Positions 15,212-51,084 of a stretch of 64,000 bases of DNA are shown piece by piece. The position numbers were made by a program, and so were the translations under genes. The notes beneath the pieces are model-generated. The model worked only from the letters and a program-made list of their open reading frames with translations, was not told the origin of the DNA and did no database searches. This stretch comes from Phototrophicus methaneseepsis (GTDB taxonomy: Bacteria; Chloroflexota; Anaerolineae; Aggregatilineales; Phototrophicaceae), in contig NZ_CP062983.1 in NCBI RefSeq assembly GCF_015500095.1, forward strand, positions 3,844,001-3,908,000, read 5' to 3'. The first letter of the stretch is position 1, and every line of letters starts with the position of its first letter.

Positions 15212-16444
15212 CTAGCTATCTTTGCCGAGATTCATGCTTACGAGCACAAGATCGTTGATGTTAACAATGCCATCATTATTCAAGTCGGCAAATGAGGGCG
15301 CATCGGGCACGCGGATACCAAGATAGCTTGAGACAAGTCCAATATCGGCCATATCCACACGCTCATCATCGTTGACGTCGCCACCCGTCAGCGAGATTGT
15401 TGGCAGCACAACGGACTCTGTGTCAACATCAATTTGCATCACACGCGCCGCATAATGCGCGGCATTGACCCGCACTTCATACAGCCCGGGTTCCAGATCA
15501 ATCGAGAAGGCATCATCCCCTACGATTGTCATAACCTCTACAAAAGCATCACCCGCAATAGCAACCGTGACGGGTACATCTTGCCGTAACAAATGAACCT
15601 GGCCCGACACATTAGATTTGGGCAGCACCGCTGTAGCTGTAGGGTCTAGAATCGGCGAGGACAGCCCTGTTGAGGTATCCGCCGGACGTTCATCGGACTT
15701 TATAATCCCTAATCCTGAAATCACAGTCGGCGTTATTTCAGGCGGCAGTAAGGCAATTTCTGTTGCCTGGGACGTATTTTCTGTTGGAATACTGGTCGGA
15801 TCAAATACCATCGTCGGTGATGGCACGACCTCAACAACTTGCTGTGTTGGCTGTGGCAATACCACATCGACAGTAACTGTAGGCGACGCTTCTGGCATCG
15901 TCACGACCACCTCAGGCGTTGCAGTTATTTCAATCACAACCTGGGTAGGCGTGAACTCTATAGCAGAGTCTACAACACTCGTAGCCACAATCTCTGATAT
16001 CGCTGTTGGCGATGCTTCAATGATTTGCGTGGGCTGTTCTACTGGCAGGCCCTGCGTTGGAGAAGGTTCAATCACAACTGGCTGTGTAGGTGAAGCCTCA
16101 ACTGGCAATACCTCAGTTGGCGGCACCTGCGTTGGTAGAACTTGAGTTGGTGGGATCTCAGTCGGTGGCACCTCGGTTGGTGGCACTTGCGTCGGCGGGA
16201 CTACAGTTGGAGGAATCTGTGTCGGTGGCACCTGTGTTGGAGGAATCTGTGTCGGCGGCGGCAAAGTAGGCTGAATCGGCTGTTCTACTGGAGCACTCCC
16301 AACAGCTTGCGTCGGTTCCACGACTGTTGCAGGATCTATAGGGGCTTCAGGTGTCGTCTGGTTTGCCAACACAAAGTGCGTGCAAGCGATAATGACAATT
16401 GCAAAGATCTTCCACGATCTTGATTTCCAGTTAGACTTTTCCAT
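15212..16444 (-). CDS. secreted threonine/proline-rich dockerin protein (module 1, gene C)
   Basis: Exported protein of 410 residues. After an N-terminal hydrophobic signal (FAIVIIACTHFVLANQ) comes a long stalk of stuttering PPTQ/PPTE units (about 40-125), continuing as a Thr/Pro/Val-rich stretch to about 275. Then comes a beta domain resembling a carboxypeptidase-regulatory fold (VSGQVHLL ... LEPGLYEVRVNAAHY), and a C-terminal type-I dockerin with two calcium loops, GDVNDDERVDMADIGLVSSY and ADLNNDGIVNINDLVLVS. It is the third gene of a minus-strand run after a dockerin protein and a membrane-anchored cohesin protein. The dockerin probably binds that cohesin. Its paralogue is at 26334-27884, which carries an extra domain. 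Confidence 0.82.
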   Translation of the reverse strand: MEKSNWKSRSWKIFAIVIIACTHFVLANQTTPEAPIDPATVVEPTQAVGSAPVEQPIQPTLPPPTQIPPTQVPPTQIPPTVVPPTQVPPTEVPPTEIPPTQVLPTQVPPTEVLPVEASPTQPVVIEPSPTQGLPVEQPTQIIEASPTAISEIVATSVVDSAIEFTPTQVVIEITATPEVVVTMPEASPTVTVDVVLPQPTQQVVEVVPSPTMVFDPTSIPTENTSQATEIALLPPEITPTVISGLGIIKSDERPADTSTGLSSPILDPTATAVLPKSNVSGQVHLLRQDVPVTVAIAGDAFVEVMTIVGDDAFSIDLEPGLYEVRVNAAHYAARVMQIDVDTESVVLPTISLTGGDVNDDERVDMADIGLVSSYLGIRVPDAPSFADLNNDGIVNINDLVLVSMNLGKDS

Positions 16445-16466
16445 GATTAGCCCATCTTACCTTGAT

Positions 16467-16491
16467 GGGTGTGGCCTATTAGACCACACCC
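16467..16491 (-). promoter_or_regulatory. intercistronic hairpin between cohesin and dockerin genes
   Basis: Perfect 8-bp GC-rich stem GGGTGTGG/CCACACCC with a 9-nt loop, between the cohesin-gene stop and the dockerin-gene start. Likely an mRNA processing or attenuation element; there is no long T-run. Confidence 0.5.
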
Positions 16492-16516
16492 AAATTCGTG
16501 CGTTGACTGTTGATGA

Positions 16517-17242
16517 CTAGCGTGATCTGCGTGTGAAGAAGAACAGACCAACAAGACCGACGAGACCAACAATGACAAGTAACAGGGCACCCAGCCACAA
16601 AGCATTGTTCTGTGTATCTTCAGCCGGCTGCGTTGGTGCGGGTTGGGTTGCTTCTACAGTGCTATCCGCAGCCACTGTTGCCTGTTCAGGCGGCGCAACG
16701 GTGACCTCAGAAGATGATCCGTCCCCAATTTGCAGCTGAGCACCCGTAGCAGAGAGGGTGCCATCTTCGAGATCATAAGAAACCACCTCAATGATTTCAG
16801 CAGATGGATCGACATAGCTGCTCACCTGAGCATATGTTACATCCACAGAAGCAGTCCCCTGCTCGCACGTCACCTCAAGTGGTACAGAGTAAAAAATACC
16901 ATCGCCGTTGACGTACTTTGTGCGATCTGTCAGAGCAGAAGCAAGACGTGTATCGTGCTCGTTTAATTCTGCAAAAGCAGAGAAAGCACCTTCTTCATCG
17001 CTTGTTGGCAGGTAATCGCCAGGTTGGCGCTCCGTAATGCGGAGGCAAGTTTCATCAACAGCAATGCCAACATCGACACCACCAACATTGACGCCATTAC
17101 GAACGTAAATTGCCGCATCGACAACATCGCCTTGTTGAGCATTGTCCTGGCTCAGGACGACATCAACAGATGGATTTTCCTGCGCCAGAGCGGTACCAGC
17201 CATCAAACATGTGAGCAATAGCACAAACTTAATAATACGCAT
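16517..17242 (-). CDS. membrane-anchored cohesin-domain protein (module 1, gene B)
   Basis: 241 residues from the ATG at 17242, which has AAGGACTTGT just upstream; the start at 17290 would put an unlikely 16-residue leader before the signal peptide. Layout: Sec signal (MRIIKFVLLLTCLMAGTALA), a cohesin-like beta-sandwich at about 22-170 (SQDNAQQGDVVDAAIYVRNG, then GVDVGIAVDETCLRI), a Thr/Pro/Ala linker, then a C-terminal membrane helix (LWLGALLLVIVGLVGLVGLF) ending in RRSR. The domain would sit outside the membrane as a receptor for dockerins. Its paralogue at 25538-26323 shares GGxDxGxxVDETCL and HDxRxAxALTDRTK patterns. Confidence 0.82.
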   Translation of the reverse strand: MRIIKFVLLLTCLMAGTALAQENPSVDVVLSQDNAQQGDVVDAAIYVRNGVNVGGVDVGIAVDETCLRITERQPGDYLPTSDEEGAFSAFAELNEHDTRLASALTDRTKYVNGDGIFYSVPLEVTCEQGTASVDVTYAQVSSYVDPSAEIIEVVSYDLEDGTLSATGAQLQIGDGSSSEVTVAPPEQATVAADSTVEATQPAPTQPAEDTQNNALWLGALLLVIVGLVGLVGLFFFTRRSR

Positions 17243-17307
17243 ACAAGTCCTTGATTGAGCATTCAATGTGTTGATCGCATTGTAACCCATATACGAATGA
17301 AGAAATG

Positions 17308-17340
17308 ATAAAGGGTAGGCTGATACAGCCTACCCTTTAT
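17308..17340 (-). promoter_or_regulatory. perfect 15-bp hairpin between dockerin and cohesin genes
   Basis: Arms ATAAAGGGTAGGCTG and CAGCCTACCCTTTAT with a 3-nt loop. It sits between the stop of the upstream dockerin gene and the start of the cohesin gene on the minus strand. The A/T ends of the stem make it terminator-like in both directions, so it may allow only partial read-through. Confidence 0.65.
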
Positions 17341-17358
17341 AGACTGAAAAGCTTAGGC

Positions 17359-18399
17359 TTAGCTGCCGGTACCGCAGCTACCGCTGGTCTGGCCAAAGTT
17401 ACGACCAACATGGACGAGGTCAAGAATGTTCAGGATATCATCACCGTTGATGTCTTTGTCATCACCGGGGTTTGTGCTATAGTTCGCGCCGATAGCCGTT
17501 GCGTCGGTGTTGTCGATGTCACCATCGTCATCAGCATCGCCGGCGTTAAGTGTAACGGTACCTGCACTACCAATGATGGTATCAACATCTGTCGCACTGC
17601 CTGTATCACCCAGGTTAATCGTATCGCTGCATGCCAAGTGCCCTGTCATATCTACGGCAGCGCTGATGTTCAGAGTGCCATCAGATGCAGGAGTACCGTC
17701 TTCTGAGTAACGATATGTCACATCCATATTGAAGGTGTTGGTATAGCTAGCTATGTCTGCCACACTGTAGTCTTTATCGCCAAGTGTGAAGTCAATGCTA
17801 TTCGTCGATGAAATTGTCGTAACGTCGCTACGAACTTCCATATCGCCCGATAACCATGCCAGGTCAATGTCAGTCACGGTCACGCTGATATCATTTACAT
17901 CCCGCAGCCAGCCAGACAGCGAAGCACCCTGATTATCAGAGAGGATGAAATCCCCATCTGTCATCACGATATCGATAGAACCATCAGTTGTCAGGTCATC
18001 TTCTGCCGTTAGTAGGAAGGAGCCCAGGGTGAAGTCTTCAACATTCACGATTTCTGAGCCCTGGCGCGATACTGCATAGAGACCACTCAGTGTATTGACG
18101 CCCGTAATGACGCCTGATGTAGCACCTGTCGAAACATCTGCGAATGTACCAGCTGTGTAGCTTGTTGGCTGGGTAGCAACGTCAAAGTCACCTGTCTGGG
18201 TAGTACCAATCTGGAAGCCAAACACATTGTTCAAGGTCGGTACATCATCACATTGAACTGTAATGGTGACATCTTCATCTTCTTTAATTGTCGTTGCGGA
18301 TGCTGTAGCATAGCAACCCGCCACCGGATCGGCACTTGCCGTATAGACCATGCCCACGACCATGATCAGAGCAACGGAAACTAAAAGTTTGCGTGACAT
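17359..18399 (-). CDS. secreted cohesin-like/dockerin protein (module 1, gene A)
   Basis: 346 residues with a Sec signal (LLVSVALIMVVGMVYTASA). An N-terminal beta-rich region begins AGCYATASATTIKEDEDVTI with NVFGFQIGT, which resembles a cohesin-type fold. A C-terminal type-I dockerin lies at about 287-346 with loops GDADDDGDIDNTDATAIG and KDINGDDILNILDLVHVG. A protein with both kinds of domain could form chains or bind the membrane-anchored cohesin encoded next. It is the first gene of the minus-strand run; the 11-bp tandem repeat at 18500-18521 lies about 100 bp upstream. The paralogue at 24491-25462 matches it end to end, best in the dockerin tail (LVHVGRN). Confidence 0.8.
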   Translation of the reverse strand: MSRKLLVSVALIMVVGMVYTASADPVAGCYATASATTIKEDEDVTITVQCDDVPTLNNVFGFQIGTTQTGDFDVATQPTSYTAGTFADVSTGATSGVITGVNTLSGLYAVSRQGSEIVNVEDFTLGSFLLTAEDDLTTDGSIDIVMTDGDFILSDNQGASLSGWLRDVNDISVTVTDIDLAWLSGDMEVRSDVTTISSTNSIDFTLGDKDYSVADIASYTNTFNMDVTYRYSEDGTPASDGTLNISAAVDMTGHLACSDTINLGDTGSATDVDTIIGSAGTVTLNAGDADDDGDIDNTDATAIGANYSTNPGDDKDINGDDILNILDLVHVGRNFGQTSGSCGTGS

Positions 18400-18708
18400 C
18401 GGTTATTTCTTTCCCCACTAAAAGGATAGGTTAGCTTTTGGATTGTCGCTCTCTGCAAAGATGAACGACTATTTCCTTAAGATTAGAAATACTCGTCACA
18501 AATACGTACCAAATACGTACCAAGATACACAGAACTACGTATCAATTGAGGCAAAGTATTAATTTACAATTGGAACATAAAGTAATGAAGCTATAGACAA
18601 CATTTTTAATAGCAGTGAAGCGAGTTTCAGAGAATCTTATATCGTAAACCTAGCACGAAGCCGTGACGTTAGATAACGAAGTATAGGAGAGGAAGCTCAC
18701 AAAGTCGT
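18400..18708. other. divergent promoter region, SARP gene / module 1
   Basis: About 310 bp between the dockerin gene (minus) and the SARP-type regulator gene (plus). The notable content is the 11-bp tandem repeat listed separately. The rest is AT-rich with no coding features. Confidence 0.6.
18500..18521 (-). promoter_or_regulatory. 11-bp tandem direct repeat, candidate SARP operator
   Basis: Two exact head-to-tail copies of AAATACGTACC (on the minus strand GGTACGTATTT), with a third degraded copy (GTGACGAGTATTT) adjoining on the side nearer the dockerin gene. SARP regulators bind short direct repeats with 11-bp or 22-bp spacing near promoter -35 regions. This one is next to a SARP-type gene and upstream of the dockerin operon. 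Function is inferred. Confidence 0.5.
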
Positions 18709-19521
18709 ATGAATACAAAAAACAGCATGCTCACAAATCAGCCGCACATTCGTATCGTCCTGTTTGGTCCACCACAAATTTTTATAAACGGGAAGCCAGG
18801 TTATCTTAAACGTCGTAAATCCTATGAGCTCCTTGCGTATCTTGCAGTCAACAAACGCCCCTACTCACGGGAATATCTTGCGAGCTTGCTATGGCCCGAC
18901 GTACCGGATAAAACAGCATCAACAAGGTTACGAAACCTACTCACAGACATTCGATCCGTCATCACAGATGACAACCTGATTTGCGAAGGTGATGTTGTTA
19001 TTCTTGATAACTCTATAGAAGTGGATGTCCAGCAGTTCGAAGCAAGTGCGCAGCCCTTCTACGAAGGCCAAAATCGGGGTTTATCTCCGAATACGCTTCG
19101 TCAGCTTGAGCAAGCAACGCATATCTATACAGATCATTTTCTGAGTGGCTTCAACAGCCGCGACTCAGCGGAGTTTGACGACTGGAAATACATATTTTCA
19201 GAAAAGTATTTCAATATCGTCCTGGGTATGTTCGCAGCTTTAGCCAACCATTACTTTGTGCATTCACAGGCGCAAGAGATGTATAGTGTCGTCCAAAGAT
19301 GGTTATCCTTTGAGCCGCTCTCAGAAGAAGCCCACCGCCTGCTCATCAAGCTTTATCTAAAGCATAACCGCCCGGATAAAGCGCTGCATCAATATCATAT
19401 GCTAGCTCGCATGCTGGAGCGTCAAGAAGGTGTGCAACCACTACCGGAAACAATGGAACTGTATGAAGTTATACGCAGCTTCCGCACAAACACGCATCAT
19501 GCCGTTCACGCAGTAAACTAG
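18709..19521 (+). CDS. SARP-type transcriptional activator (winged helix + BTAD)
   Basis: 270-residue cytoplasmic regulator. Residues about 12-105 form an OmpR-like winged helix of the SARP kind (RIVLFGPPQIFINGKPGYLK, then YELLAYLAVN, then LASLLWPD with ASTRLRNLLTDIRSVI). About 110-260 is the bacterial transcriptional activation domain (DVQQFEASAQPFYEG, then LSGFNSRDSAEFDDW, then RLLIKLYLKHNRPDKALHQY). It lacks the large ATPase/TPR extensions of long SARPs. It is divergent from the module-1 cohesin/dockerin operon and converges with the large surface-protein gene. It is the only regulator gene between the two modules, so it is the natural candidate to control both. Confidence 0.85.
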   Translation: MNTKNSMLTNQPHIRIVLFGPPQIFINGKPGYLKRRKSYELLAYLAVNKRPYSREYLASLLWPDVPDKTASTRLRNLLTDIRSVITDDNLICEGDVVILDNSIEVDVQQFEASAQPFYEGQNRGLSPNTLRQLEQATHIYTDHFLSGFNSRDSAEFDDWKYIFSEKYFNIVLGMFAALANHYFVHSQAQEMYSVVQRWLSFEPLSEEAHRLLIKLYLKHNRPDKALHQYHMLARMLERQEGVQPLPETMELYEVIRSFRTNTHHAVHAVN

Positions 19522-19531
19522 TCAAATAAAA

Positions 19532-19573
19532 TAGAGCCGTTCCCAATCCAGTATATAGGTGAGAACGACTCTA
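19532..19573. terminator. bidirectional terminator between SARP gene and surface-protein gene
   Basis: Stem TAGAGCCGTTC / GAACGACTCTA (one mismatch) with an 18-nt loop in the short gap between two converging genes. AT-rich sequence lies on both sides. Confidence 0.55.
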
Positions 19574-19599
19574 CCTTTGTTGATTTGAATTTCAGCCGC

Positions 19600-22500
19600 T
19601 TAGCTGCGGTTCATCACACCCCACACAAGCATCACGACAACCCCCATGACACTGAAGAAGCTCATAAGGGGCAAACGCCAGCCAGACCATGGGCTTTCGC
19701 CAGTCGATGGGAGCTGATTCACTGAAGAGCCCGTAGAACAGAGTGACGTTCCATAATTATCAGCCATCAGGCAGGCCGTGTTACTGACGCTCGCCCCCTG
19801 CAAAGTCGTCGTAAAGATACTGAAGTTGATACTTTGTCCGGGGTTCAACGCAGGGATCGTCACCGTTACCACTTGCCCCTCAATGTCCGAAGTAACTCCT
19901 TCCGGCACTTCCACGGAGTTGATTCGTAAGTCAGCGTTGACTGTATCCGTAACGACGATATTTGTGCCAGCAGTACCGCCATTATTGGAAACTGTCACGA
20001 TCCATTCCAATTGTTCCCCACTGACACCTGTCTGCCCTGGGACCAGGAAACCTAGCTTACTGATTGCAGGGTCAAAGACATCTATCGAAGCCCCACCACT
20101 TGCTGTCTCGGCAGGTTCTTCATCATCGCTTGTAATGGTATAAACTGCTGTACTGATAACGGTCATATCACCATCTGCATCGCCGATGCCAAACCCAGCA
20201 CTGGCATTTTGCAGGGCCAGGGTCAGGGTCTCATCAAATTCAGCATTTGTATCACCGACAATACTTAATGCAGCAGCAGGAATCGCCACACTCTGCACGG
20301 TTGTGTAATCGCCGGCCGGTATTGTGATCGTCGCAGTGGTTTGAATATAGTCATTATCAGCCAACGTTGCAGTCCCATCTGTCAAAATGAGGTCTACTGT
20401 CGCAGGGCTTGCAATGACCCCACCACTGACCAAGAGCGTCGGCGAGACTATAGCAGATGTCCCGCTGTCCCCTTCCAGGCCAGAAGCCGTTGCCGCACTG
20501 AATTCCACACTAAACGTAACCCCATCATCATTGAGAATCGTATAGGTCGCTGTGGACGTGGTTGCTGTATCACTATTGGCATCGCCAATGCTCAAGCCCG
20601 TACTGGGGTTCTGTAACGCGAGCGACAAGCTCTCATCTGCTTCAACATCGGCATCACCGACAATACTTAGCGCAGCAGCAGGAATCGCCACACTCTGCAC
20701 GGTTGTGTAATCGCCAGCCGGTATCGTGATCGACGCAGCCGTTTGAGCATAATCGCTATCCGCCAGCGTCGCCGTGCCATCTGTCAAAGTGAGGTCCACT
20801 GTCGCAGGACTTGCCAACACACCACCACTGACCAATAATGTCGGTCCTGTCACGGCTGATGACCCACTATCCCCTTCCAGGCCAGAAGCCGTCGCCGCGC
20901 TGAATTCGACATTGAACGTCAGGCTGTCATCATTGAAGATCGTATAGGTCGCTGTGGAAGTCGTCGCGGTATCGCTGTCCGCATCGCCAATAGCGAAACC
21001 CGTACTGGGGTTCTGCAGTGCCAGCGACAAGGTTTCGTCCAGTTCATCCGTCGTATCACCGGTAATACTCAATGCAGTCACAGGGATCGACACACTCTGT
21101 ACTGTCGTATAATCCGCAGCCGGTATGGTGATCGTTGCAGAAGTCTGGCTATAGTCGCTATCCGCCAATGTCGCCGTGCCGTCAGTCAAAGCGAGGTCCA
21201 CAGTTGCAGGACTTGCCAGCACACCACCACTGACCAACAATGTCGGCGCTGTCACAGATGAAGTCCCACTATCCCCTTCCAGGCCAGAAGCCGTCGCCGC
21301 GCTGAATTCGACATTAAAGCTTACGCTGTCGTCATTGAGGATGGTATAGGTTGTGGTCGATATTGTCGTCAGATCATTATTGGCGTCGCCAATGACAACC
21401 CCTGTGCCTATATTTTGAATGCCCAATGTAAAATCTTCATCAGGTTCATCCGTCGTGTCACCGACGATACCCAATGCTGCGACCGGGATAGAGATACTCT
21501 GAACGGTGGTGTAATCCGCAGCCGGGATGGTTACGGTTGCCGAAGTCTGGCTGTAATCACTATCAGCCAGTGTTGCGGTCCCATCTGTGAGTAAAATTTC
21601 CAGCGTGATTGCACTAGCCAGGTTACCACCGCTAACCAATAAAGTCGGCGAAGAAACCGCGCTGGTACCACTATTGCCCTCCACGCTGGATGCCGTTGTA
21701 GCACTGAACTCTACCAGGATAGGATAAGATACCTTTGCGATAAACCCATCATTGAGGCCACCAATATAGGAAGGTGAATAGCCTGGGATTGAACCGGGGC
21801 CATCGCCATCCGGGAAGGTGCCATCATTGCTCGCGCTTATACCAACAATATACACATTCCGGAGGCTATCCATAGCAATGGTATAACCATATTCGTTACC
21901 CGCACCGCCGATGTAGCCAGAGTAAACATAAGCGGTGCCACTAGCGTTAATCATGGTGATGAACGCATCGCCACCACTGGCACCATTTTTTGTCAAATCC
22001 GGGCCACCAACTACAGGGAAAGTCGCCTGAGTCGACGATGTTTGCCCGGTCACATACGCATTGCCATTACTATCCACGACAACGCCGGAGGCAGCATCAA
22101 AACTACTACCGCCCAGGAAGGCTGAATAGACAGTATTCCCAGACGCATCTAGCTTCGCGACAAAGCCATCTCGCGTCCCTCCACCATAAGTGGTATCCAG
22201 GCTGCCAACTGTCGGGAAATTTGTCGATTGCGTCTCACCCGCAACATAAGCGTTGCCGCTGCTATCGACGGCAATACCCAGGCCATTATCTGTGCTAGAA
22301 CCACCTAATGTCGTTAAATAATCCGTCGCATTACCCGCCGCATTGACTTTGGCAACGACGGCGTTTGTGCCGATTTGTCCGGTCACATAAGCACTACCGG
22401 ACGCATCAACAGCGATACCGCGCCCTGTGCCCGAACCGACATTGTATTGATAGACGAAGCCAGTCCCAGCGGCATTTACCTTATGAACGCCGATACTACC

Positions 22501-23775
22501 ACCAATGGAACCCGTCACATACGCATTACCGCTTGCATCAACCGCAATCGCCCGGCCATTTGTCGTCGCAATATAACCCGCGTAATCCAAGCTCGCACCA
22601 GATGCATTGACTTTGGCGACAAAAGCTGTATTCCCTCCAGGATGCGTCAGAACTGGCCCGCCTGTAACCGGGAAAGTCGCTTCACTTGACCCAGTGTGCC
22701 CTGTCACATACGCATTACCGCTTGCATCAACGGCTACAGCATAGCCAATATCACCACCACTACCGCCAATATATCCCGCATAAATAATGGCAGTACCAGC
22801 GGCATTTAACTTCTTGATAAATGCATCACCGCCAAAGTTACCGTTCCACGTCAGATCAGGACCGACTGTCACGGGAAAGTTAGCTTCGTTCGAAGTTGTC
22901 ATTCCTACAATGTAGGCGTTGCCGCTGCTATCAACATCGACCCCATACGCAATATCATTCGCCGTACCACCCACAAAGGAGGCATATATCAAAACGGGAT
23001 CAATTGTAAGCGATAAGCTTTCATCATATTGGCCCAGCACAAAGTGCACCGTCTCACCAGAGATAGCAAAGCGACTTTCAACAACTGTTTCGACACCATC
23101 AACCATTTGATAGCTGTAGGGAGCGCGCATTGTTAGCGTCTGTGAGCCAATGTCCAGTAGCAGGCTGCCCTCCTCTGTTAAGGTAAGGTTCTCTACAGGG
23201 TCAAATGCCAGTTGGATCTGTGAGGGGTCTGCGTATGGGGCAATCTCAAAATCGTACTGTAGTTGTTGAGGATTGCCGTAGAAAATAGCATCAATACCAT
23301 CATAAAGTTGCTGGTACCGCACTTTGCCATAGTGTGCAATGCTTGTGTGCCACTCTTCACGAGAGCCAATAAAATAGCTGCTGATACCTTCTTGAAGCGA
23401 TTCCCCCACTAATGAAGGATGTGGGTTCGCCCCTTCGAAGTTAAGTTGTAAGCCATATCTCCCAGCAGCATGCGCAACAGCATCAAAAGAAGCGTTTGCT
23501 TCTTCCATTTCCAGGGAGAAAACAGCTTGATTTTCAGTTAAGAAGAGCGTATAGCCACTTGTGCGAGCCATATAACGAACTTGATCGTTAACCTGGCCTT
23601 CGTTGGCTTCAAAGTAGATTGGTAGTTGACCGTAAGTGGAAAGGATACGATCAGCGACCAGGTTTGTTTCTTGGTTTAGTATATCTTCTTCAGCCGACAG
23701 CTCAATATAAGAAATTGAACCGAGTAATATTATCGTTAAAATCCCTATAATAAGGCCTTTTTGTGCCCCCACCAT
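19600..23775 (-). CDS. giant surface protein: SBBP propeller repeats, four Calx-beta repeats, DUF11, LPSTG tail
   Basis: 1391 residues. Order: N-terminal hydrophobic signal/anchor (residues 7-25); an SBBP-associated N-domain (YFEANEGQVNDQVRYMAR onward, to about 270); about eight SBBP-type beta-propeller units to about 690, each with GNAYVTG-like cores; four Calx-beta-like repeats of about 130 residues (each starting VEFSAxTAS and ending TYTILNDD or similar); a DUF11-type domain (about 1245-1345); then LPSTG (19699-19713) followed by a hydrophobic helix and a short Arg-containing tail. The tail has the form of a sortase sorting signal, though it could simply be a membrane anchor; no sortase gene is in the window. 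It lies between the two inverted cohesin/dockerin modules and is probably a cell-wall or adhesive component. Confidence 0.85.
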   Translation of the reverse strand: MVGAQKGLIIGILTIILLGSISYIELSAEEDILNQETNLVADRILSTYGQLPIYFEANEGQVNDQVRYMARTSGYTLFLTENQAVFSLEMEEANASFDAVAHAAGRYGLQLNFEGANPHPSLVGESLQEGISSYFIGSREEWHTSIAHYGKVRYQQLYDGIDAIFYGNPQQLQYDFEIAPYADPSQIQLAFDPVENLTLTEEGSLLLDIGSQTLTMRAPYSYQMVDGVETVVESRFAISGETVHFVLGQYDESLSLTIDPVLIYASFVGGTANDIAYGVDVDSSGNAYIVGMTTSNEANFPVTVGPDLTWNGNFGGDAFIKKLNAAGTAIIYAGYIGGSGGDIGYAVAVDASGNAYVTGHTGSSEATFPVTGGPVLTHPGGNTAFVAKVNASGASLDYAGYIATTNGRAIAVDASGNAYVTGSIGGSIGVHKVNAAGTGFVYQYNVGSGTGRGIAVDASGSAYVTGQIGTNAVVAKVNAAGNATDYLTTLGGSSTDNGLGIAVDSSGNAYVAGETQSTNFPTVGSLDTTYGGGTRDGFVAKLDASGNTVYSAFLGGSSFDAASGVVVDSNGNAYVTGQTSSTQATFPVVGGPDLTKNGASGGDAFITMINASGTAYVYSGYIGGAGNEYGYTIAMDSLRNVYIVGISASNDGTFPDGDGPGSIPGYSPSYIGGLNDGFIAKVSYPILVEFSATTASSVEGNSGTSAVSSPTLLVSGGNLASAITLEILLTDGTATLADSDYSQTSATVTIPAADYTTVQSISIPVAALGIVGDTTDEPDEDFTLGIQNIGTGVVIGDANNDLTTISTTTYTILNDDSVSFNVEFSAATASGLEGDSGTSSVTAPTLLVSGGVLASPATVDLALTDGTATLADSDYSQTSATITIPAADYTTVQSVSIPVTALSITGDTTDELDETLSLALQNPSTGFAIGDADSDTATTSTATYTIFNDDSLTFNVEFSAATASGLEGDSGSSAVTGPTLLVSGGVLASPATVDLTLTDGTATLADSDYAQTAASITIPAGDYTTVQSVAIPAAALSIVGDADVEADESLSLALQNPSTGLSIGDANSDTATTSTATYTILNDDGVTFSVEFSAATASGLEGDSGTSAIVSPTLLVSGGVIASPATVDLILTDGTATLADNDYIQTTATITIPAGDYTTVQSVAIPAAALSIVGDTNAEFDETLTLALQNASAGFGIGDADGDMTVISTAVYTITSDDEEPAETASGGASIDVFDPAISKLGFLVPGQTGVSGEQLEWIVTVSNNGGTAGTNIVVTDTVNADLRINSVEVPEGVTSDIEGQVVTVTIPALNPGQSINFSIFTTTLQGASVSNTACLMADNYGTSLCSTGSSVNQLPSTGESPWSGWRLPLMSFFSVMGVVVMLVWGVMNRS
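20100..21720 (-). repeat. four tandem ~390-bp coding repeats (Calx-beta)
   Basis: Internal near-repeats within the giant surface-protein gene. Blocks such as CTGTCGCAGGACTTGCCA and CCCTTCCAGGCCAGAAGCC recur at a spacing of about 390 bp. The second to fourth units are most alike, as expected for recent intragenic duplication. Confidence 0.8.
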
Positions 23776-24490
23776 CTTTGACTCCCCTTAGCAAGAGATG
23801 ATCTCGCTATTTAGCTAACGAGCTCAACGCTGAAAATAAACCAAGTAACCATCCATTACTGGATATGTGAAAATTATTTAATACTTCCTCAACAGTAATA
23901 GGCTCGATTATAGCGTATTTAACTTGCAGTTCAACAGACTAATTGAAACCAACCTAAAGAATGAGCTTCTACATGGTTTGAAAAAAAGCAAGGCTATGGC
24001 AAATAAACACATCAGGCAGTTATATTTATATAATCCAGTAATATGTACTAACTTGAGATAAGACTATTTTCATATCTATGCATCAATTGCAGAATGCAGT
24101 AAAAAAAGCATAAAATATTTCGTTCTCTATCTGCTTAAGTCAGCCGCAGCATACATCAGCCGACAATCCTATATCGTCCAGCCTAGATCCTAGGATTGTC
24201 GCTGATTATCTATGAAGAGCGACTTCTCAGGAAATCTTCCAATTCACATTGCGAACAAGTATGTGCCCCATTACCTAGCCACCTTCCTACAAAAACCAAA
24301 TCCATATCAAACAAAAAATAGCTAAATTATTAGTAATAATAGTAAAAAATACGTAGATGCACCTAACTCTTTTCATTTAATGAACGCTGCTCACCTCTTA
24401 TATTAGAAGCAACAGATGTCCTTCATACCTTAGATAGGCATACTGTTGATAAATACGGTATAGCTCGACCTTCATATCCGGAGAAGTAAA
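23776..24490. other. long AT-rich intergenic region between surface-protein gene and module 2
   Basis: About 715 bp between divergent genes. It holds both promoters and the long hairpin at 24155-24206. An AAATACGTA match to the 18500 repeat occurs near 24347, but not as a tandem repeat. No gene is supported. Confidence 0.6.
24155..24206. repeat. long inverted repeat / hairpin
   Basis: Arms ATCAGCCGACAATCCTA (24155-24171) and TAGGATTGTCGCTGAT (24191-24206) pair over 16 bp with a single bulged C and a 19-nt loop. It lies in the middle of a non-coding region, away from any gene end, without a T-run. It could be a small mobile-element remnant, a regulatory structure or a small RNA terminator. 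Confidence 0.55.
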
Positions 24491-25462
24491 ATGCAACGTA
24501 AGTTAATCATTCTGAGCATTGTTGTTAGCGTGTTATGTTTTGGCGTAACCATCGTAGGCGCAAGCGATCCACTGGCCGCAGGTTGCTATGTCGATGCGCC
24601 GGCTACAGTTGACGAAGGCTCAACATTTACAGCTACGATTCGGTGCAATTCATTGCTTTCCGTTTTCGGCTTTGAGATTGGCACCGCCCTATCTGGAGAT
24701 GCATCAACGGCAGCCACGACGTTTACACCAGGCACGTTCACCACAGCAGCGTCAGGTGGTGTCGCAGTTGGCAGCAATACCCTCGATGTTTATGCGGTCA
24801 GCCGGATCGGCGTCAACATAGCGACAGGCGACTTTTCACTGGGCAGTTATGACGTCACAGCAGATGTCGGCCTCACATCCAATGGCAGCACCACTGTTGA
24901 TCTAACAACGTTGAAGCTATCGACAATTTTAGGTGTACCCATTCTGGGCATGCTCCAGACGAACCCAGAAGCCGTGGTTACAGTGAACAACATTGACCTC
25001 AGCCTGCTTACAGGCAATGTCAATGTTGCCAGTGACGGCGGCGAGGGCATTTCTTCTATGAATAACGTTGAGATGACGCTCGACGGCGTCAGTTATAGTC
25101 AGGCATCCGTCCCGGCAAACAGTCATGCTTTCACTCTACTCAGCGGTCTTCAATTCCCAGACCTTGATATTGACGTCACCGCCGATATGGAGGGTCATCT
25201 CAATTGTGCGAGGACATATTCGCTCATTGATGGGCCTAATGTAGCAGGGGTAGCTATCGGCACAATCACACTTCTCGCTGGGGATGTGGTCACAGTTAGT
25301 GATTCTGACATTAACATTCAGGACGCAACAGCCATTGGCGCACAATTTGGCAGCAGTTCACCGACTGGAGAAGTCGATATTAACGGCGACGGTCTCGTCG
25401 ATATCTATGACCTTGTGCACGTCGGCCGCAACTACGGTGCATCTGCCGGGAATTGTGCCTAG
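24491..25462 (+). CDS. secreted cohesin-like/dockerin protein (module 2, gene A)
   Basis: 323 residues with a Sec signal (MQRKLIILSIVVSVLCFGVT...GAS). The mature start AAGCYVDAPATVDEGSTFTA and SVFGFEIGT match the module-1 paralogue, as does the C-terminal dockerin (VDINGDGLVDIYDLVHVGRN). The first dockerin loop is degenerate: GDVVTVSDSDINIQDATAIG lacks the Asp-rich calcium pattern kept in module 1 (GDADDDGDIDN). It is the first gene of a plus-strand trio. The start ATG has GGAGAAG 7 nt upstream. It probably partners the membrane cohesin protein encoded next. Confidence 0.8.
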   Translation: MQRKLIILSIVVSVLCFGVTIVGASDPLAAGCYVDAPATVDEGSTFTATIRCNSLLSVFGFEIGTALSGDASTAATTFTPGTFTTAASGGVAVGSNTLDVYAVSRIGVNIATGDFSLGSYDVTADVGLTSNGSTTVDLTTLKLSTILGVPILGMLQTNPEAVVTVNNIDLSLLTGNVNVASDGGEGISSMNNVEMTLDGVSYSQASVPANSHAFTLLSGLQFPDLDIDVTADMEGHLNCARTYSLIDGPNVAGVAIGTITLLAGDVVTVSDSDINIQDATAIGAQFGSSSPTGEVDINGDGLVDIYDLVHVGRNYGASAGNCA

Positions 25463-25471
25463 CTGTTTATG

Positions 25472-25498
25472 AGGATGAGACCGTATGCGCCTCATCCT
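25472..25498 (+). promoter_or_regulatory. intercistronic hairpin between module-2 genes A and B
   Basis: 8-bp stem AGGATGAG/CTCATCCT with an 11-nt loop, 10 nt after the stop of gene A. It occupies the same relative place as the 15-bp hairpin of module 1 although the sequences are unrelated. This also argues that gene B starts downstream at 25538. Confidence 0.5.
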
Positions 25499-25537
25499 TA
25501 CCATCTCTTTGATCAAAAAGTTCTTGAGTATTTCAAT

Positions 25538-26323
25538 ATGCGCAACGACAGCTCCACAATAGTCAGATACGCTTTCAGATGCACCGTGATACTCCTTAGC
25601 CTGACTATAGCCTCTATGGCACAGGCACAATCAACTCCCATCGTCGAAATTAACCTGAGTCAGCCACAGGCTCACCAGGGCGATACAGTCAGTGCTAGCA
25701 TTTATATCCGCAACGCTCAGAATATTGGTGGTGCAGATATTGGCATGATGGTTGACGAAACATGCTTGAAAATCGTAGGCCTTCAGAGAGGAGCCTTTTT
25801 ATCTGGATCAGGTAACGATAGCCTATTTGAAGTTATCAACCAGGTAAACGACCACGATGCACGCTTTGCAGCAGCCCTGACAGATCGCACAAAAGTAGGC
25901 ACAGGGACAGGCAATTTCTATCATATAACCCTGGAAGTCATTTGCGAGCAGGGTATTGCCCCTTTGAATATCACATTCGCTGAACTCAGCGCTTACAAAG
26001 ACCCTTCTGCCAGCGAAATCGAACTCACTGCTTATACGCTCGCCTCGGGTAATTTAGAGATCCACAATACAGAGTTAGAAGTCATTCCAGGGTCGCTTGA
26101 AGTCGAAGAGCTCGGCCTGGAACAAATCAGTGATCGTACAGAACCCGCGTCAGGTGCCACAGAAGAGAAAACCCTCGCTACCAGCCAGAATCCGGCAGAT
26201 TTACATCAGGATACCAACATACTCGCCATCATTGTGCCTCTTTGGTGCACAAGCATGATGCTTATCCTATTAGCTATGTTTGTCGTCAGGCGCAAAAAGC
26301 GGCGGCAGGTTTCAGAGCATTGA
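25538..26323 (+). CDS. membrane-anchored cohesin-domain protein (module 2, gene B)
   Basis: 261 residues from the ATG at 25538; an in-frame ATG at 25469 would place the signal peptide after 23 extra residues and through a hairpin. Layout: signal (FRCTVILLSLTIASMAQAQ), cohesin-like domain at about 30-180 (SQPQAHQGDTVSASIYIRNA, then GADIGMMVDETCLKI, then HDARFAAALTDRTK), a polar Glu/Thr linker, a C-terminal membrane helix (IIVPLWCTSMMLILLAMFVV) and a basic tail RRKKRRQ. Same architecture as 16517-17242. Expected at the outer face of the membrane as a dockerin receptor. Confidence 0.82.
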   Translation: MRNDSSTIVRYAFRCTVILLSLTIASMAQAQSTPIVEINLSQPQAHQGDTVSASIYIRNAQNIGGADIGMMVDETCLKIVGLQRGAFLSGSGNDSLFEVINQVNDHDARFAAALTDRTKVGTGTGNFYHITLEVICEQGIAPLNITFAELSAYKDPSASEIELTAYTLASGNLEIHNTELEVIPGSLEVEELGLEQISDRTEPASGATEEKTLATSQNPADLHQDTNILAIIVPLWCTSMMLILLAMFVVRRKKRRQVSEH

Positions 26324-26333
26324 GTAGCCAGTG

Positions 26334-27884
26334 ATGAACCTGAGAGAAAGCCAAATCGCCAAAACCTATCGCGACATGCGCTGGAACGTCCTGTTTTGTA
26401 TGGGCGCATTACTTGTGGTATGGGTATGTTCTTTCGCATTCGCAGAAGACGGCGCATCAGATGAAAACCTATCCACAACGGAGGTGATACCTCTGACAAT
26501 GACGCTGCAATCAACGCCCGACGTGCCTGTCAGCACGCCAACAGCACTGCCTACAAACGCGCCAACAATAGCCCCAACACTGGCCCCCACGATCCAGCCG
26601 ACGCAAACATCTATTGCGCCAACATTAATACCTACAGAGACAACACTCATTCAGGCAACAGCGACCGTAACCAGCTTACCCACACAAACGGAATCCATCC
26701 CGCAGCCGACGCTGGATAGTCCGGCACTGGACAATCCAGCCATGACACCAACAGCGTTATCAGAGATAGATATCACACCGGTAGCGATCACAGAAGCATT
26801 GACAGAGACGCCGACACAAACATGGGATGGCATTACGCAGCCAACAGCAAGCACAGAAGCAACATCGATACCAACTTCAACACCATTCGTTGATGTGAGT
26901 GGCCTAACACCCACCATGACACTAGATGTCACAACGCCTATCAATCCGGGCATTATGGCGAATGCCGCGCACTTGCCCCTCAATACGACATTTTCATTCA
27001 TGATCACAGCACAAGGATTAACAGACATCAAGTCTCTGGAGTTGGCTTGCCAGGTAGACCCATCCAAATTACGCGGTCGCCTCTCTACAGCGGGGGAATT
27101 ATTCTCAGTCGCCCATGACATCAGCAACGAAAGCGGCTTTATGGAAGATGGCCACTATTCAGTCATGGCGACGCTCCAAGAAGCATCCCCTTCCCTTCAT
27201 GAGACGCGCATCCTATGGATTCTTGATTATGAAACCATCGCTGCTGGACAAACCCAGGTCATGTGCGAGATTGGCATGTACGATGCAGAAAACCAGCCGC
27301 TGCCATTGAGCATGCAGCGCGTCACATTCACACTCAACATTGATTCTGAAACATCGGCGCCACCGACCGAGACCCTGGAACAAATCACAACGATTGAGGC
27401 TACCCCTACCTCTGGCATCACACCCACCATAGAGATCACTCCAACATCCCTACCTGTAGCAACCGTTCCGCCTACGCCAACCGGGATACCATTGTCGCGG
27501 CTGCATGGGCAGATTTTGTCATACAATCCATCTATGGTCGCAAGAATCAGCAGCGCTACAGGAACCCAGGATGTGGTCGTACAGGCGGATGGCAGCTTTA
27601 CGCTGGAACTACCACAAGGGACCTATGAATTAACCGTGACGGCTCCGCAACATCTTCCTCATACGCAATCATTTATCTTGATCGAACCGGATATGTCGCT
27701 TCAGGCCATTATGCTCACAGCCGGGGACCTGGATGGCAATGGCACCATTGATCAGCAGGACCTTGATATCATCCGAGCGTGTTATGGTCAGCTCACGTCA
27801 TCAGCACCGGCAGCGTTTGATCTCAATCAAGACAGCATCATCGATATTTACGACCTTGCTATCATCAGCAGCAACATGTCGTAA
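26334..27884 (+). CDS. secreted Thr/Pro-rich dockerin protein with extra beta domain (module 2, gene C)
   Basis: 516 residues from ATG 26334 (GTG 26331 is possible). A hydrophobic signal at about 18-38 is followed by a Thr/Pro-rich stalk (about 60-200, units such as TPTALPTNAPTIAPTLAPT). Then comes a beta domain of about 130 residues (LNTTFSFMITAQGLTDIKSL onward) that resembles a cohesin and is absent from the module-1 paralogue. A second short Thr/Pro linker, a carboxypeptidase-regulatory-like domain (LHGQILSY ... LPQGTYELTVTAPQHL) and a C-terminal dockerin (GDLDGNGTIDQQDLDIIRAC, FDLNQDSIIDIYDLAIIS) follow. It begins 10 bp after gene B. Probably a stalked scaffold or cell-surface spacer. Confidence 0.82.
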   Translation: MNLRESQIAKTYRDMRWNVLFCMGALLVVWVCSFAFAEDGASDENLSTTEVIPLTMTLQSTPDVPVSTPTALPTNAPTIAPTLAPTIQPTQTSIAPTLIPTETTLIQATATVTSLPTQTESIPQPTLDSPALDNPAMTPTALSEIDITPVAITEALTETPTQTWDGITQPTASTEATSIPTSTPFVDVSGLTPTMTLDVTTPINPGIMANAAHLPLNTTFSFMITAQGLTDIKSLELACQVDPSKLRGRLSTAGELFSVAHDISNESGFMEDGHYSVMATLQEASPSLHETRILWILDYETIAAGQTQVMCEIGMYDAENQPLPLSMQRVTFTLNIDSETSAPPTETLEQITTIEATPTSGITPTIEITPTSLPVATVPPTPTGIPLSRLHGQILSYNPSMVARISSATGTQDVVVQADGSFTLELPQGTYELTVTAPQHLPHTQSFILIEPDMSLQAIMLTAGDLDGNGTIDQQDLDIIRACYGQLTSSAPAAFDLNQDSIIDIYDLAIISSNMS

Positions 27885-29840: not shown

Positions 29841-29863
29841 ATAAAGAGTATACATTGACTATG

Positions 29864-29906
29864 GTTGACATGTCAACAATTATGCTATACTGGTTGACAT
29901 GTCAAC
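29864..29906 (+). promoter_or_regulatory. divergent promoter with two identical MarR-type palindromes
   Basis: Perfect palindrome GTTGACATGTCAAC occurs at 29864-29877 and 29893-29906, centres 29 bp apart. Each contains a TTGACA -35 hexamer on both strands; for the plus strand TTGACA at 29865 is followed after 15 bp by TATACT (29886-29891). Repressor binding to both sites would cover the promoters in both directions. Confidence 0.8.
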
Positions 29907-29926
29907 TAAAAGAGGTTACATCGATC

Positions 29927-32200
29927 ATGAACTATGGTCATAACTTGCAATTTGGCACATTCATCACGCCCTCAAACAAAGACCCACAGAACACCGTCTC
30001 GCTCGCAAAACGCAGTGAGGAACTTGGGTATGATTTGGTAACGTTTCAAGATCACCCCTACCAGCCCGCCTTCCTCGACACATGGACGCTCATGTCCTGG
30101 GTCGCCGGGCAGACTGAACGGATACACATTGCGGCCAACGTCCACAATCTACCCCTAAGAGACCCTGCCATACTGGCTCGCTCAGCCGCAAGCCTGGACC
30201 AGCTTTCTAATGGGCGGCTAGATCTCGCATTGGGTGCTGGCGCTTTCTGGGCAGCGATTGAAGCAATGGGCGGACGCAAACTCTCAGCGAGTGAATCTGT
30301 CGACGCGCTTACAGAAGCAATCGCCGTCATCCGCGGATTGCTAGATGTCGGCAGCGGCACACCGTTCAGTTACGATGGTGACTACTATCATCTCAAGGGT
30401 GCGGAACGTGGTCCCCTACCCTTACACGATATTCCTATCTGGCTTGGCGCTTATAAGCCACGCATGCTGCGCTTAATCGGTCAGAAAGCAGATGGCTGGC
30501 TGCCCTCACTCGGATATATGAAGCCAGGGGATTTACAATCCGGGAACCAGATCATCGACAAAGCGGCTAACGAAGCAGGACGAGACCCACGCGAAATCCG
30601 CCGCATGCTCAATATCTCCGGGCAATTCCATGCCGCTCGCGAGGGTCTCCTACAAGGGCCAGCCAGCCAATGGGTTGAGGAACTGCTGCCCCTTATCGTC
30701 GAAGATGGCATCAGCACCTTTATCCTGATGGCAGATGACATGCAGATCATGGAACAATTCGCAGAAGAAGTCGTCCCTGCGCTGCGCGAAGCCGCTTATG
30801 AGGCAATCCCGGAACTGGCTCATGGCGGGGTGCAGATTCGCCGTGCAGAAGCGCGTGCTAAACGCCGCCAGGGCATCGACTATGATCATGTACCTGCCTC
30901 GCTTGCCCACACAGTCATTGAACCTGGCGATATTGATTATGCTCGCGTCAAATCGACATACATGCGTGGCGGCGCACCTGGCATCGTTTTCCAGGTAAAC
31001 AATACAGATGAAGTCATAGACGCACTGGCTTTCGCCCGCAAACACCCCAATTTACCAATGGGGATTCGCAGCGGCGGCCATGGCATTAGTGGCCGCTCAA
31101 CCAACAATGGGGGCATCATCATTGATCTTTCCCATATGAATCAGATTGAAATCCTGGACGAAGCAAGCCGTCGGGTCCGCATTGGGCCAGGCGCACGCTG
31201 GATGGACGTCGCAATAGCATTGGCTCCTTATGGCTGGGGAATGAGTTCAGGTGACTACGGCGGTGTTGGCGTCGGTGGCTTAGCTACAGCCGGGGGGATT
31301 GGCTGGCTTTCCCGCAAGCATGGCCTGACGATTGATCATGTGCGCGCTGTAGAAATGGTCTTAGCAGATGGATCTGTGGTACGTGCAAGTGAAGAGGAAA
31401 ATGCCGATCTATTCTGGGCGGTACGCGGTGCCGGCGGCAACTTCGGCATTGTTACCAGCTTTGAATTTGAAGTTTATGATGTTGGCAACATTGGCTGGGC
31501 ACAATTAGTCTTCGATGCCAGCGATGCAGCAAGCTTCCTGAAACAATGGGGTGCCGCCGTAGAAGCTGCCCCGCGCGACCTGACAAGTTTTCTAATCATG
31601 GGGCCGCCTCGTCGGGGGCAGCCACCTATTGCCCAAGTCCTGGCCGTTGTAGATTCCGACCAACCAGACAAAATCATTAACATACTTCAACCGCTGGCTA
31701 ATATCGCGCCGATGTATGATCAGAATGTCGTCCTGACGCCTTATACAAACATCATAGCCAATGCCCAAAGTGGGTACCACGATGGCTATGGAGAGCCTAT
31801 CGCGCACTCCGGCCTGATTGAACACATCACACCGGAATTTGCCCGTGATGCTGCTCAGTTTATCTATAGTGGTGCGACCTACTTCTTCCAAATTCGTGCT
31901 GTTGGTGGTGCTGTTTCAGATGTCCCCCCGGATGCGACAGCCTACGGGTATCGCTCTGCTAATTTTTCCATTGCCGCGATGGGCGCAAGCCATCGGCAGA
32001 TAGACCCGGCCTGGCGTCAATTATCCAGGCACTTCAAGGGGATGTATCTGAACTTCGAGACGGATCAACATCCTGACCGCCTGCAGGATGCCTTCCCACC
32101 GCAAACGCTGGAAAGACTGCAAGCGCTGAAGCAGCAATACGACCCTGACAACGTCTTCCGCGACAATTTCAACCTCTCACCCATACCGGAAAAGCAGTAA
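29927..32200 (+). CDS. fusion of LLM flavin oxidoreductase and FAD-linked oxidase (BBE type)
   Basis: 757 residues from ATG 29927, with AAAAGAGG upstream. Residues 1-290 are a luciferase-like monooxygenase domain (LVTFQDHPYQPAFLDTWTLM, LDLALGAGAFWAAIEAMGGR), of the type using F420 or FMN. From about 340 an FAD-linked oxidase domain follows: IRSGGHGISGRS holds the His that usually bonds FAD, and YGGVGVGGLATAGGIGWLSR is the second FAD loop. The Cys that forms the second FAD link in berberine-bridge enzymes is absent (SGDYGGV). The C-terminal BBE segment ends YDPDNVFRDNFNLSPI. The two halves would act in tandem on one hydrophobic substrate, perhaps detoxification, but this is inference. Confidence 0.85.
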   Translation: MNYGHNLQFGTFITPSNKDPQNTVSLAKRSEELGYDLVTFQDHPYQPAFLDTWTLMSWVAGQTERIHIAANVHNLPLRDPAILARSAASLDQLSNGRLDLALGAGAFWAAIEAMGGRKLSASESVDALTEAIAVIRGLLDVGSGTPFSYDGDYYHLKGAERGPLPLHDIPIWLGAYKPRMLRLIGQKADGWLPSLGYMKPGDLQSGNQIIDKAANEAGRDPREIRRMLNISGQFHAAREGLLQGPASQWVEELLPLIVEDGISTFILMADDMQIMEQFAEEVVPALREAAYEAIPELAHGGVQIRRAEARAKRRQGIDYDHVPASLAHTVIEPGDIDYARVKSTYMRGGAPGIVFQVNNTDEVIDALAFARKHPNLPMGIRSGGHGISGRSTNNGGIIIDLSHMNQIEILDEASRRVRIGPGARWMDVAIALAPYGWGMSSGDYGGVGVGGLATAGGIGWLSRKHGLTIDHVRAVEMVLADGSVVRASEEENADLFWAVRGAGGNFGIVTSFEFEVYDVGNIGWAQLVFDASDAASFLKQWGAAVEAAPRDLTSFLIMGPPRRGQPPIAQVLAVVDSDQPDKIINILQPLANIAPMYDQNVVLTPYTNIIANAQSGYHDGYGEPIAHSGLIEHITPEFARDAAQFIYSGATYFFQIRAVGGAVSDVPPDATAYGYRSANFSIAAMGASHRQIDPAWRQLSRHFKGMYLNFETDQHPDRLQDAFPPQTLERLQALKQQYDPDNVFRDNFNLSPIPEKQ

Positions 32201-33154: not shown

Positions 33155-33498
33155 AAAGTCACCCATACAAATCAACAGAAAGCCATTTCCCTGTGGTTAT
33201 TGGGAAATGGCTTTTTTTATTGATGATCACTCCGGCAGATTTTATGCTCTCAGTAAATATTTTAATTAATGGAAATATGCTTAATAAATTACCCCACATT
33301 AAAAGTGTTTTCATCTGCCTCGATTTCTCCTATTGATGCCCCCTATCTATCTCTTTCTCACCCGCAAAATTACCTGTGCTTATTTGCAATCTATGCATTA
33401 ACCACTCGTGTGGAAATCCACCTGCGACACCGTTAGTATCACAGTACCTTCGTTCACCATTTCACAAGGTATATTATCCGTCTAAAGGAGCCTGTTTC
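33155..33498. other. intergenic region with terminator and leader
   Basis: 344 bp holding the terminator at 33179-33219 and the AT-rich promoter region of the following binding-protein gene. I see no clear Fur box or riboswitch, although the downstream gene looks like a metal- or siderophore-binding protein. Confidence 0.55.
33179..33219 (+). terminator. Rho-independent terminator of the LLM operon
   Basis: 13-bp perfect stem AAAGCCATTTCCC/GGGAAATGGCTTT followed by a run of Ts (CTTTTTTTAT). Confidence 0.9.
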
Positions 33499-43220: not shown

Positions 43221-43262
43221 GATCATGTGTTTCAAGCACAACCGTTTAAGAAAGAAAAGAAT

Positions 43263-47874: not shown

Positions 47875-47884
47875 GGGGTTACTG

Positions 47885-51072: not shown

Positions 51073-51084
51073 GGAGGACATAAA

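What the first reader, a model, noticed from the sequence alone, without database searches (positions are those of the whole stretch)
15212..27884. Two mirrored cohesin/dockerin operons around a SARP gene and an LPSTG surface protein
15212-18399 (minus) and 24491-27884 (plus) each hold, in transcription order, a secreted cohesin-like/dockerin protein, a membrane-anchored cohesin protein, and a Thr/Pro-stalk dockerin protein. The members are paralogous pair by pair (LVHVGRN in A, VDETCL in B, paired dockerin loops in C). None has a catalytic domain. The inverted symmetry around a regulator and a giant repeat protein suggests a non-cellulosomal surface assembly kit that arose by inverted duplication.
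Basis: partly seen in the sequence, partly recalled or inferred. Interest (0 to 1): 0.82.

Follow-up and report, generated by a model that had tools for sequence, protein, structure and literature searches.

The report
Twin enzyme-free cohesin–dockerin surface operons
A deep-sea filamentous bacterium carries two copies of a three-gene kit built from the snap-together parts of cellulosomes but without enzymes, probably a self-linking protein coat held to its membrane, and relatives hang enzymes on the same parts.

Summary
The genome is very probably Phototrophicus methaneseepsis ZRK33 (same length, 5,631,885 bp). Two operons point away from each other: A = cohesin-like + dockerin; B = cohesin + C-terminal membrane helix; C = Thr/Pro stalk + X-like module + dockerin. 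C1 lacks it. All four dockerins and the five confident cohesins of the genome lie in these 12.7 kb; none is joined to an enzyme. In 9 of 10 A loci from nine other genomes A is followed by B. 'Inverted duplication' is not supported: trees reject A1 and A2 as sisters, and a relative holds both types on different contigs. A SARP gene sits beside operon 1 with an 11-bp repeat array conserved in a second species; operon 2 lacks it. In same-family genomes cohesin-X-dockerin tails are fused to GH44, GH10 and GH5 enzymes, and no ORF with more than two cohesins was found in 12 genomes. Best reading: a membrane-capped chain whose links mostly carry one cohesin and one dockerin. Binding is untested.

The parts
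17359..18399 (-). A1: signal-like N-terminus, cohesin-like N domain (about 17863-18309), middle domain, dockerin (17371-17544)
   Evidence: the cohesin assignment of A1 itself is weak
16517..17290 (-). B1: secreted cohesin (16733-17167), linker, C-terminal membrane helix (16538-16594), basic tail
   Evidence: Pfam Cohesin 3e-5, over cut-off; hydropathy
15212..16444 (-). C1: signal-like N-terminus, Thr/Pro stalk, X-like module (15383-15622), dockerin (15215-15385); no cohesin found
   Evidence: Pfam Dockerin 2.5e-8
24491..25462 (+). A2: signal-like N-terminus, cohesin-like domain (24587-25000), middle domain, dockerin (25277-25459) with off-consensus first loop
25469..26323 (+). B2: cohesin (25643-26077), C-terminal membrane helix (26219-26275), basic tail
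   Evidence: Pfam Cohesin 5.8e-6, over cut-off; hydropathy
26331..27884 (+). C2: signal-like N-terminus, Thr/Pro stalk, cohesin (26946-27350), X-like module (27489-27722), dockerin (27720-27881)
   Evidence: Pfam Dockerin 4.2e-6; model and PDB matches; in-session profiles
18709..19521 (+). SARP/BTAD-type regulator gene, divergent from operon 1
   Evidence: Pfam BTAD 1.7e-15; 65% identical gene in the same place in G054
18489..18543 (-). 11-bp-phased direct-repeat array, predicted SARP operator
19600..23775 (-). DUF7948/SBBP/DUF11 giant with a C-terminal LPSTG; lies between the operons, membership of the kit not shown
   Evidence: two sortase matches in the genome

Best explanation
Each operon encodes a small, enzyme-free cohesin-dockerin surface assembly. 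B is the anchor: exported, held by one C-terminal membrane helix, showing one cohesin outwards. A and C are exported and carry a dockerin at the C-terminus; A1, A2 and C2 also carry a cohesin or cohesin-like domain nearer the N-terminus. I infer that calcium-loaded dockerins of A and C plug into the cohesin of B, and that the cohesins of A and C2 accept further dockerins, so that a chain grows outwards from the membrane, with the Thr/Pro stalk of C as spacer and C1, which has no cohesin, as an end cap. The SARP next to operon 1 probably switches operon 1 through the 11-bp repeats. Shown by computation: domains (weakly for the A cohesin), predicted topology, gene order, the closed set in the genome, the old paralogy, the conserved repeat array. 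Inferred: which dockerin binds which cohesin, chain growth, calcium dependence, surface location, SARP control.
For: Cohesin in B: over Pfam cut-off in B1 and B2; 10 of 13 B proteins hit Pfam Cohesin at E 0.01. C2 tail: Foldseek best hit CipA cohesin-X-dockerin 3kcp, 1.8e-15; cohesin part Z 13.3, 2.8 A over 136 residues. The A profile hits solved dockerins (4e-4). Genome-wide, 4 dockerin matches and 5 confident cohesin matches all fall in this stretch. Outside this genome A is followed by B on one strand in 9 of 10 loci, with a dockerin gene third in 8 of 10. C-terminal hydrophobic helix in 13 of 13 B proteins and 0 of 11 A proteins. Repeat array 80% identical over its best 50 columns between two species against 50% for the whole intergenic region.
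Against: No binding, calcium, localisation or expression data. The A1 model is poor (pLDDT 48); its PDB matches are tied with other beta sandwiches (Z at most 7.8, top row not a cohesin); 0 of 10 A proteins hit Pfam Cohesin; profile comparison of B with A gives only 36%; the profiles that find A1 or A2 contain A-family rows, so they are partly circular. Pfam Cohesin is hit by 1 of 8 C tails. The 3kcp match is module by module: rmsd 26 A over the whole, model pTM 0.40. In the PDB search the best stretch of B mostly covers about 45 residues. The first calcium loop of A2 is off-consensus. One weak cohesin match lies elsewhere in the genome (contig position 1751132, E 0.006).
Confidence: 0.55

Rival explanations
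1. Docking without a chain: A and C dock singly on the cohesin of B. The cohesin-like domains of A and C are diverged beta sandwiches that bind or display something else.
For: The A cohesin is weak by most tests; C1 has none.
Against: The C2 cohesin is clear by fold; cohesin and dockerin share an ORF in 38 of 60 dockerin ORFs of 12 genomes.
Confidence: 0.22
2. Reduced cellulosome-like system: this genome keeps the anchoring and adaptor parts of a polysaccharide-degrading complex whose enzymes were lost; the kit is a remnant or now serves adhesion.
For: Same-family genomes fuse cohesin-X-dockerin tails to GH44, GH10 and GH5 enzymes (with 80 and 91).
Against: Two operons with open reading frames and a conserved repeat array argue against decay; A-B order is kept in several genera. 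The direction of change was not tested.
Confidence: 0.15
3. Structural surface proteins only: cohesin and dockerin folds are used as rigid or calcium-binding spacers in a coat, without cohesin-dockerin pairing.
For: No binding data; off-consensus first loop in A2.
Against: By reading, seven of eight dockerin loops keep the calcium pattern, and the genome's cohesins and dockerins sit together.
Confidence: 0.08

Closest known systems
Anchoring interaction of the Clostridium thermocellum cellulosome (type II cohesin with the CipA X-dockerin; roles recalled)
   Same: B matches mostly type II cohesins of solved structure; C2 matches CipA cohesin-X-dockerin by sequence profile and fold
   Different: B has a C-terminal membrane helix and no second cohesin; no enzyme carries a dockerin in this genome
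Single-cohesin scaffoldins of Acetivibrio cellulolyticus and Pseudobacteroides cellulosolvens (PMC3413522, PMC5590126; passages read)
   Same: Cohesin and dockerin in one chain; 20 scaffoldins of P. cellulosolvens have a single cohesin, and two (ScaO, ScaP) join a peptidase module to one cohesin and one dockerin
   Different: There they stand beside scaffoldins with up to 11 cohesins and beside 143 (Acetivibrio) or about 212 dockerin genes; here no ORF with more than two cohesins was found
Cohesin/dockerin proteins of ANME archaea (PMC9012536, passages read) and the Archaeoglobus cohesin (2xdh)
   Same: Surface use proposed without cellulases
   Different: ANME have proteins with up to 5 cohesins; the passages read describe no dockerin / cohesin-membrane / dockerin operon
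Ca. Stygibacter (Cloacimonadota) dockerin enzymes and scaffoldin (PMC8542988, passages read)
   Same: Cellulosome-like set outside the clostridia
   Different: It has a 3,755-aa multi-cohesin scaffoldin

Membership tests
Cellulosome | Cohesin and dockerin modules in one genome | tested here: met
Cellulosome | Scaffoldin with several cohesins | tested here: not met
   One cohesin match per ORF in this genome; at most 2 per ORF, 71 matches in 68 ORFs, over 12 genomes
Cellulosome | Dockerin-bearing enzymes in the same genome | tested here: not met
   0 of 4 dockerin proteins here; met in same-family genomes
Cellulosome | Calcium-dependent cohesin-dockerin binding | not testable with these tools
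   needs purified domains
Cohesin family (PF00963), B and C2 | Profile or fold match | tested here: met
   B1, B2 over cut-off; C2 by fold, Z 13.3, but not by Pfam
Cohesin family (PF00963), A proteins | Profile or fold match | tested here: inconclusive
   0 of 10 by Pfam; 5 of 12 A-like proteins by an in-session iterated profile at E 0.01; cohesins lead Foldseek but are tied in the second look
Dockerin family (PF00404) | Two calcium loops, two helices | tested here: met
   C1, C2 over cut-off, two helices in the C2 model; A by family profile, A2 loop 1 off-consensus
SARP regulators | Winged-helix N domain plus BTAD | tested here: inconclusive
   BTAD 1.7e-15 over cut-off; Trans_reg_C 0.0087, below cut-off
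SARP regulators | Binding to 11-bp-spaced direct repeats | tested here: inconclusive
   Array present and conserved; binding not tested

The most novel reading that the evidence does not exclude
This Chloroflexota family builds scaffoldin-free, chain-link assemblies: most member proteins, enzymes included, carry their own single cohesin, X module and dockerin, so each subunit is both cargo and scaffold and the chain is capped at the membrane by B. This genome runs the enzyme-free minimum of the system in two parallel, separately regulated versions.
Probability: 0.3. Interest if true: 0.85.

Novelty: new variant of a known kind. Interest (0 to 1): 0.62.

Why it matters
Known cellulosomes add dockerin enzymes to scaffolds with several cohesins. 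A system in which most subunits bring one cohesin and one dockerin would follow another assembly logic, a polymer rather than a rack. The organism is cultured and its set is only six genes, so what cohesins and dockerins do without enzymes becomes testable in one organism.

Tried and rejected
Recent inverted duplication: rejected by AU tests, though the forks that unite the A1-type rows (90/93) and A2 with its nearest relative (81/81) are below the tool's mark; G110 is a metagenome bin, so its contigs could in principle come from two strains. A shared SARP operator for both operons: upstream of A2 there is one TACGTA and no array. The period-11 score alone is not unique: 98 of about 64,000 overlapping 55-bp windows reach it; the case rests on position and conservation. 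Spread through the phylum: the B profile matched 3 of 400 genomes including this one, the other two weakly, and at most 6 candidates per genome were scored, so confinement to the order is likely but not shown. PF00963 missed B1 in the whole-genome search although hmmscan finds it, so Pfam genome counts are lower bounds; in-session profiles were used instead. The A1 model is too poor to be proof. The Peer 2009 survey is not held; what I say of it is recall.

Rows left out: of the A matches I took the 11 over 90 bits (9 genomes, this one included) and G100 for the gene-order count; a 75-bit N-terminal fragment in G143 (L072, no B match beside it) was left out, and the other rows match only the dockerin end of the profile. 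In one search the cohesin profile was rebuilt three times from the same loci, so A-family rows entered it. The 12 genomes were chosen among those with matches.
Full report
Where it is. The window lies at 3844001-3908000 of a one-contig genome of 5,631,885 bp. That length equals the published genome of Phototrophicus methaneseepsis ZRK33, a filamentous deep-sea Chloroflexota isolate with a cell wall surface layer (PMC8941918, passages read). The main texts of that paper and of PMC11005417 hold no occurrence of cohesin or dockerin (term counts; supplements not searched).

What is there. Six ORFs form two operons with the order A-B-C, one on each strand, pointing away from each other. Between them lie a BTAD/SARP regulator gene and a 1391-aa DUF7948/SBBP/DUF11 protein with LPSTG near its C-terminus. 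The genome has two sortase matches, so sortase anchoring is possible. The pairs are paralogous at about 40% for A and B; C pairs convincingly only over its last 133 columns.

B. It is a cohesin with a C-terminal membrane helix: Pfam Cohesin over cut-off in both copies, 10 of 13 B proteins at E 0.01. Its profile finds solved cohesins, the best at 5.5e-12 and mostly type II, though in most rows the best stretch covers only about 45 residues. A C-terminal hydrophobic helix is found in 13 of 13, followed by basic residues.

C. It ends in a dockerin; before it comes a carboxypeptidase-regulatory-like (X-like) module, and in C2 before that a cohesin that Pfam does not report. The model of C2 residues 202-517 (pLDDT 69, pTM 0.40) has as best PDB match the cohesin-X-dockerin end of CipA (3kcp, 1.8e-15). 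The match is module by module (overall rmsd 26 A). The first domain alone aligns to cohesins at Z up to 13.3, and profile comparison of B with C gives 87%. The C profile finds CipA X-dockerins by sequence too. C1 has the X-like module and dockerin but no cohesin match, while the C of G054, the other genome of the genus, has one; its A is 76% identical to A1, so C1 probably lost its cohesin.

A. It has a dockerin tail in which H330, G332, R333 and N334 are invariant in 10 of 10 aligned A proteins, and A aligns with C over the X-dockerin part at 98%. Its N-terminal part is probably a cohesin but the case is weaker. Cohesins lead the Foldseek list of a poor model (E 1.3e-3); an iterated profile finds it in A2 at 2e-11 and in 5 of 12 A-like proteins, not in A1; a broader profile that includes A rows finds A1 at 2.7e-8. 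Against: Pfam Cohesin hits 0 of 10, profile comparison of B with A gives 36%, and in the second structural look cohesins are tied with other sandwiches. A proteins have no C-terminal helix (0 of 11); A2 has one internal hydrophobic stretch.

Calcium loops. By reading (pattern recalled), both loops of A1, C1 and C2 and the second loop of A2 keep the calcium pattern. The first loop of A2 and of its two closest relatives (G110 second copy, G142) carries a two-residue insertion and lacks acidic residues at positions 1 and 3.

A closed set. Profiles of these cohesins and dockerins find in this genome four dockerins (A1, A2, C1, C2) and five cohesins (C2, B1, B2, A2, A1, from 1.3e-41 to 2.7e-8), all in this 12.7 kb, plus one weak cohesin match elsewhere at E 0.006 (consistent). 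None of the six proteins has a catalytic Pfam family.

Conservation. Of 151 genomes drawn from the order (this one included), 29 match the A profile at E 0.001, mostly over the dockerin only, and 17 match the B profile. Matches over 90 bits to A are at 11 places in 9 genomes. With the A-like gene of G100 I examined 12 A loci, two of them the window's own. Among the 10 loci of nine other genomes A is followed by B on the same strand in 9 (the exception is G051, where a dockerin gene follows and B is reversed), and a dockerin gene comes third in 8, counting one C gene of G110 that is broken into two frames; in G149 the contig ends after B. A second form, dockerin protein, then single-cohesin protein, then dockerin protein, stands in 8 further loci (L068, L069, L070, L073-L076, L109); only in L069 did I read a membrane helix in the middle protein.

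Age of the pair. In the A tree A1 groups with G054 (96/99) and A2 with the second copy of G110 (81/81, below the tool's mark). Forcing A1 and A2 together costs 152 log units (p 8e-63), and B1 with B2 33 units (p 3.8e-4). G110 has one operon of each type on different contigs. The pair is therefore old, and its mirror arrangement is no sign of a local inverted duplication.

Regulation. Between the SARP gene and A1 lies an array of 11-bp direct repeats. In G054, where a 65% identical SARP gene sits in the same place, the array keeps its phase: 80% identity over the best 50 columns against 50% for the whole intergenic region, with peaks at periods 11 and 22 in both. The classical SARP site is 11 bp, a heptamer and a 4-nt spacer (PMC5930380, passages read). 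Upstream of A2 there is one TACGTA and no array, so I infer that operon 1 is SARP-controlled and operon 2 may not be.

Relatives add enzymes. I fetched further dockerin loci of relatives. Of 40 dockerin proteins of relatives scanned with Pfam (5, 7, 9, 9, 10; a choice, not all that were found), 12 have a catalytic-type family: GH44 in five (one also GH16), GH10 in three, and one each of GH5, glucose/sorbosone dehydrogenase, S8 peptidase and M12-type peptidase. Nine of these 12 also hold a cohesin by the in-session profile; one GH44 protein and the two peptidases do not. In G144 a GH44 protein has Cohesin (1.3e-7) and Dockerin (6.8e-6) over the Pfam cut-offs.

No scaffoldin seen. In 12 genomes, 71 cohesin matches lie in 68 ORFs, at most two per ORF, and 60 dockerin matches lie in 60 ORFs, of which 38 also hold a cohesin. 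For contrast, Acetivibrio cellulolyticus has 143 dockerin proteins and 41 cohesins in 16 scaffoldins, only some of them with both modules (PMC3413522, passages read). On the other side, 20 scaffoldins of Pseudobacteroides cellulosolvens have a single cohesin, and two join a peptidase to one cohesin and one dockerin (PMC5590126, passages read), so such proteins are not unknown. The 12 genomes were chosen because they had matches, and several are fragmented, so this is no survey.

Interpretation. The simplest model is a membrane-capped chain: the B cohesin at the membrane, dockerins of A and C plugging in, cohesins of A and C2 offering the next socket. The conserved HVGRN end of the A dockerins, absent from C and the enzyme dockerins aligned, suggests two specificities. 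Everything about binding is inferred.

Literature. Searches for cohesin, dockerin or cellulosome with Chloroflexi, Chloroflexota, Anaerolineae or Anaerolineales (12 of 12 listed; 5 of 5; 10 of 23) listed no title or abstract start that describes this system; one paper reports no cohesin or dockerin in its five Anaerolineae genomes and UNI-1 (PMC4877987, passage read). Use of cohesins and dockerins without cellulases is discussed for ANME archaea (PMC9012536, passages read). From recall, the Peer 2009 survey (not held) already notes proteins with both modules, so the parts are not new; the operon, the closed enzyme-free set and the one-cohesin-one-dockerin pattern are what these searches did not show.

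Noticed in passing
18489-18543: 11-bp-phased repeat array between the SARP gene and A1, conserved in a second species of the genus.
   Followed up: yes
40192-45577: Three very similar WD40-like proteins of 422-424 aa with a PKD-like end (starts 40192, 41671, 44309) and a shorter relative at 43227, in tandem (names recalled, no call).
   Followed up: no
46420-52317: Two genes rich in CxxCH haem motifs followed by two YeeE/YedE-like membrane genes, the second with a rhodanese-like end (names recalled, no call).
   Followed up: no
29855-32200: One 781-aa ORF that looks like a luciferase-type monooxygenase fused to a berberine-bridge-type FAD oxidase (names recalled, no call); a lone luciferase-type gene follows at 32222.
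   Followed up: no
33376-35490: A 704-aa ORF that looks like two iron-siderophore binding proteins in one chain (name recalled, no call).
   Followed up: no
L081:9900-11160 (G110): The C gene of this A2-type operon is split into two frames, and an extra B-like gene lies upstream of A.
   Followed up: partly
L117 (G054 contig 41): The other genome of the genus has a second locus with large Ig-like and PKD proteins ending in X-dockerin.
   Followed up: partly
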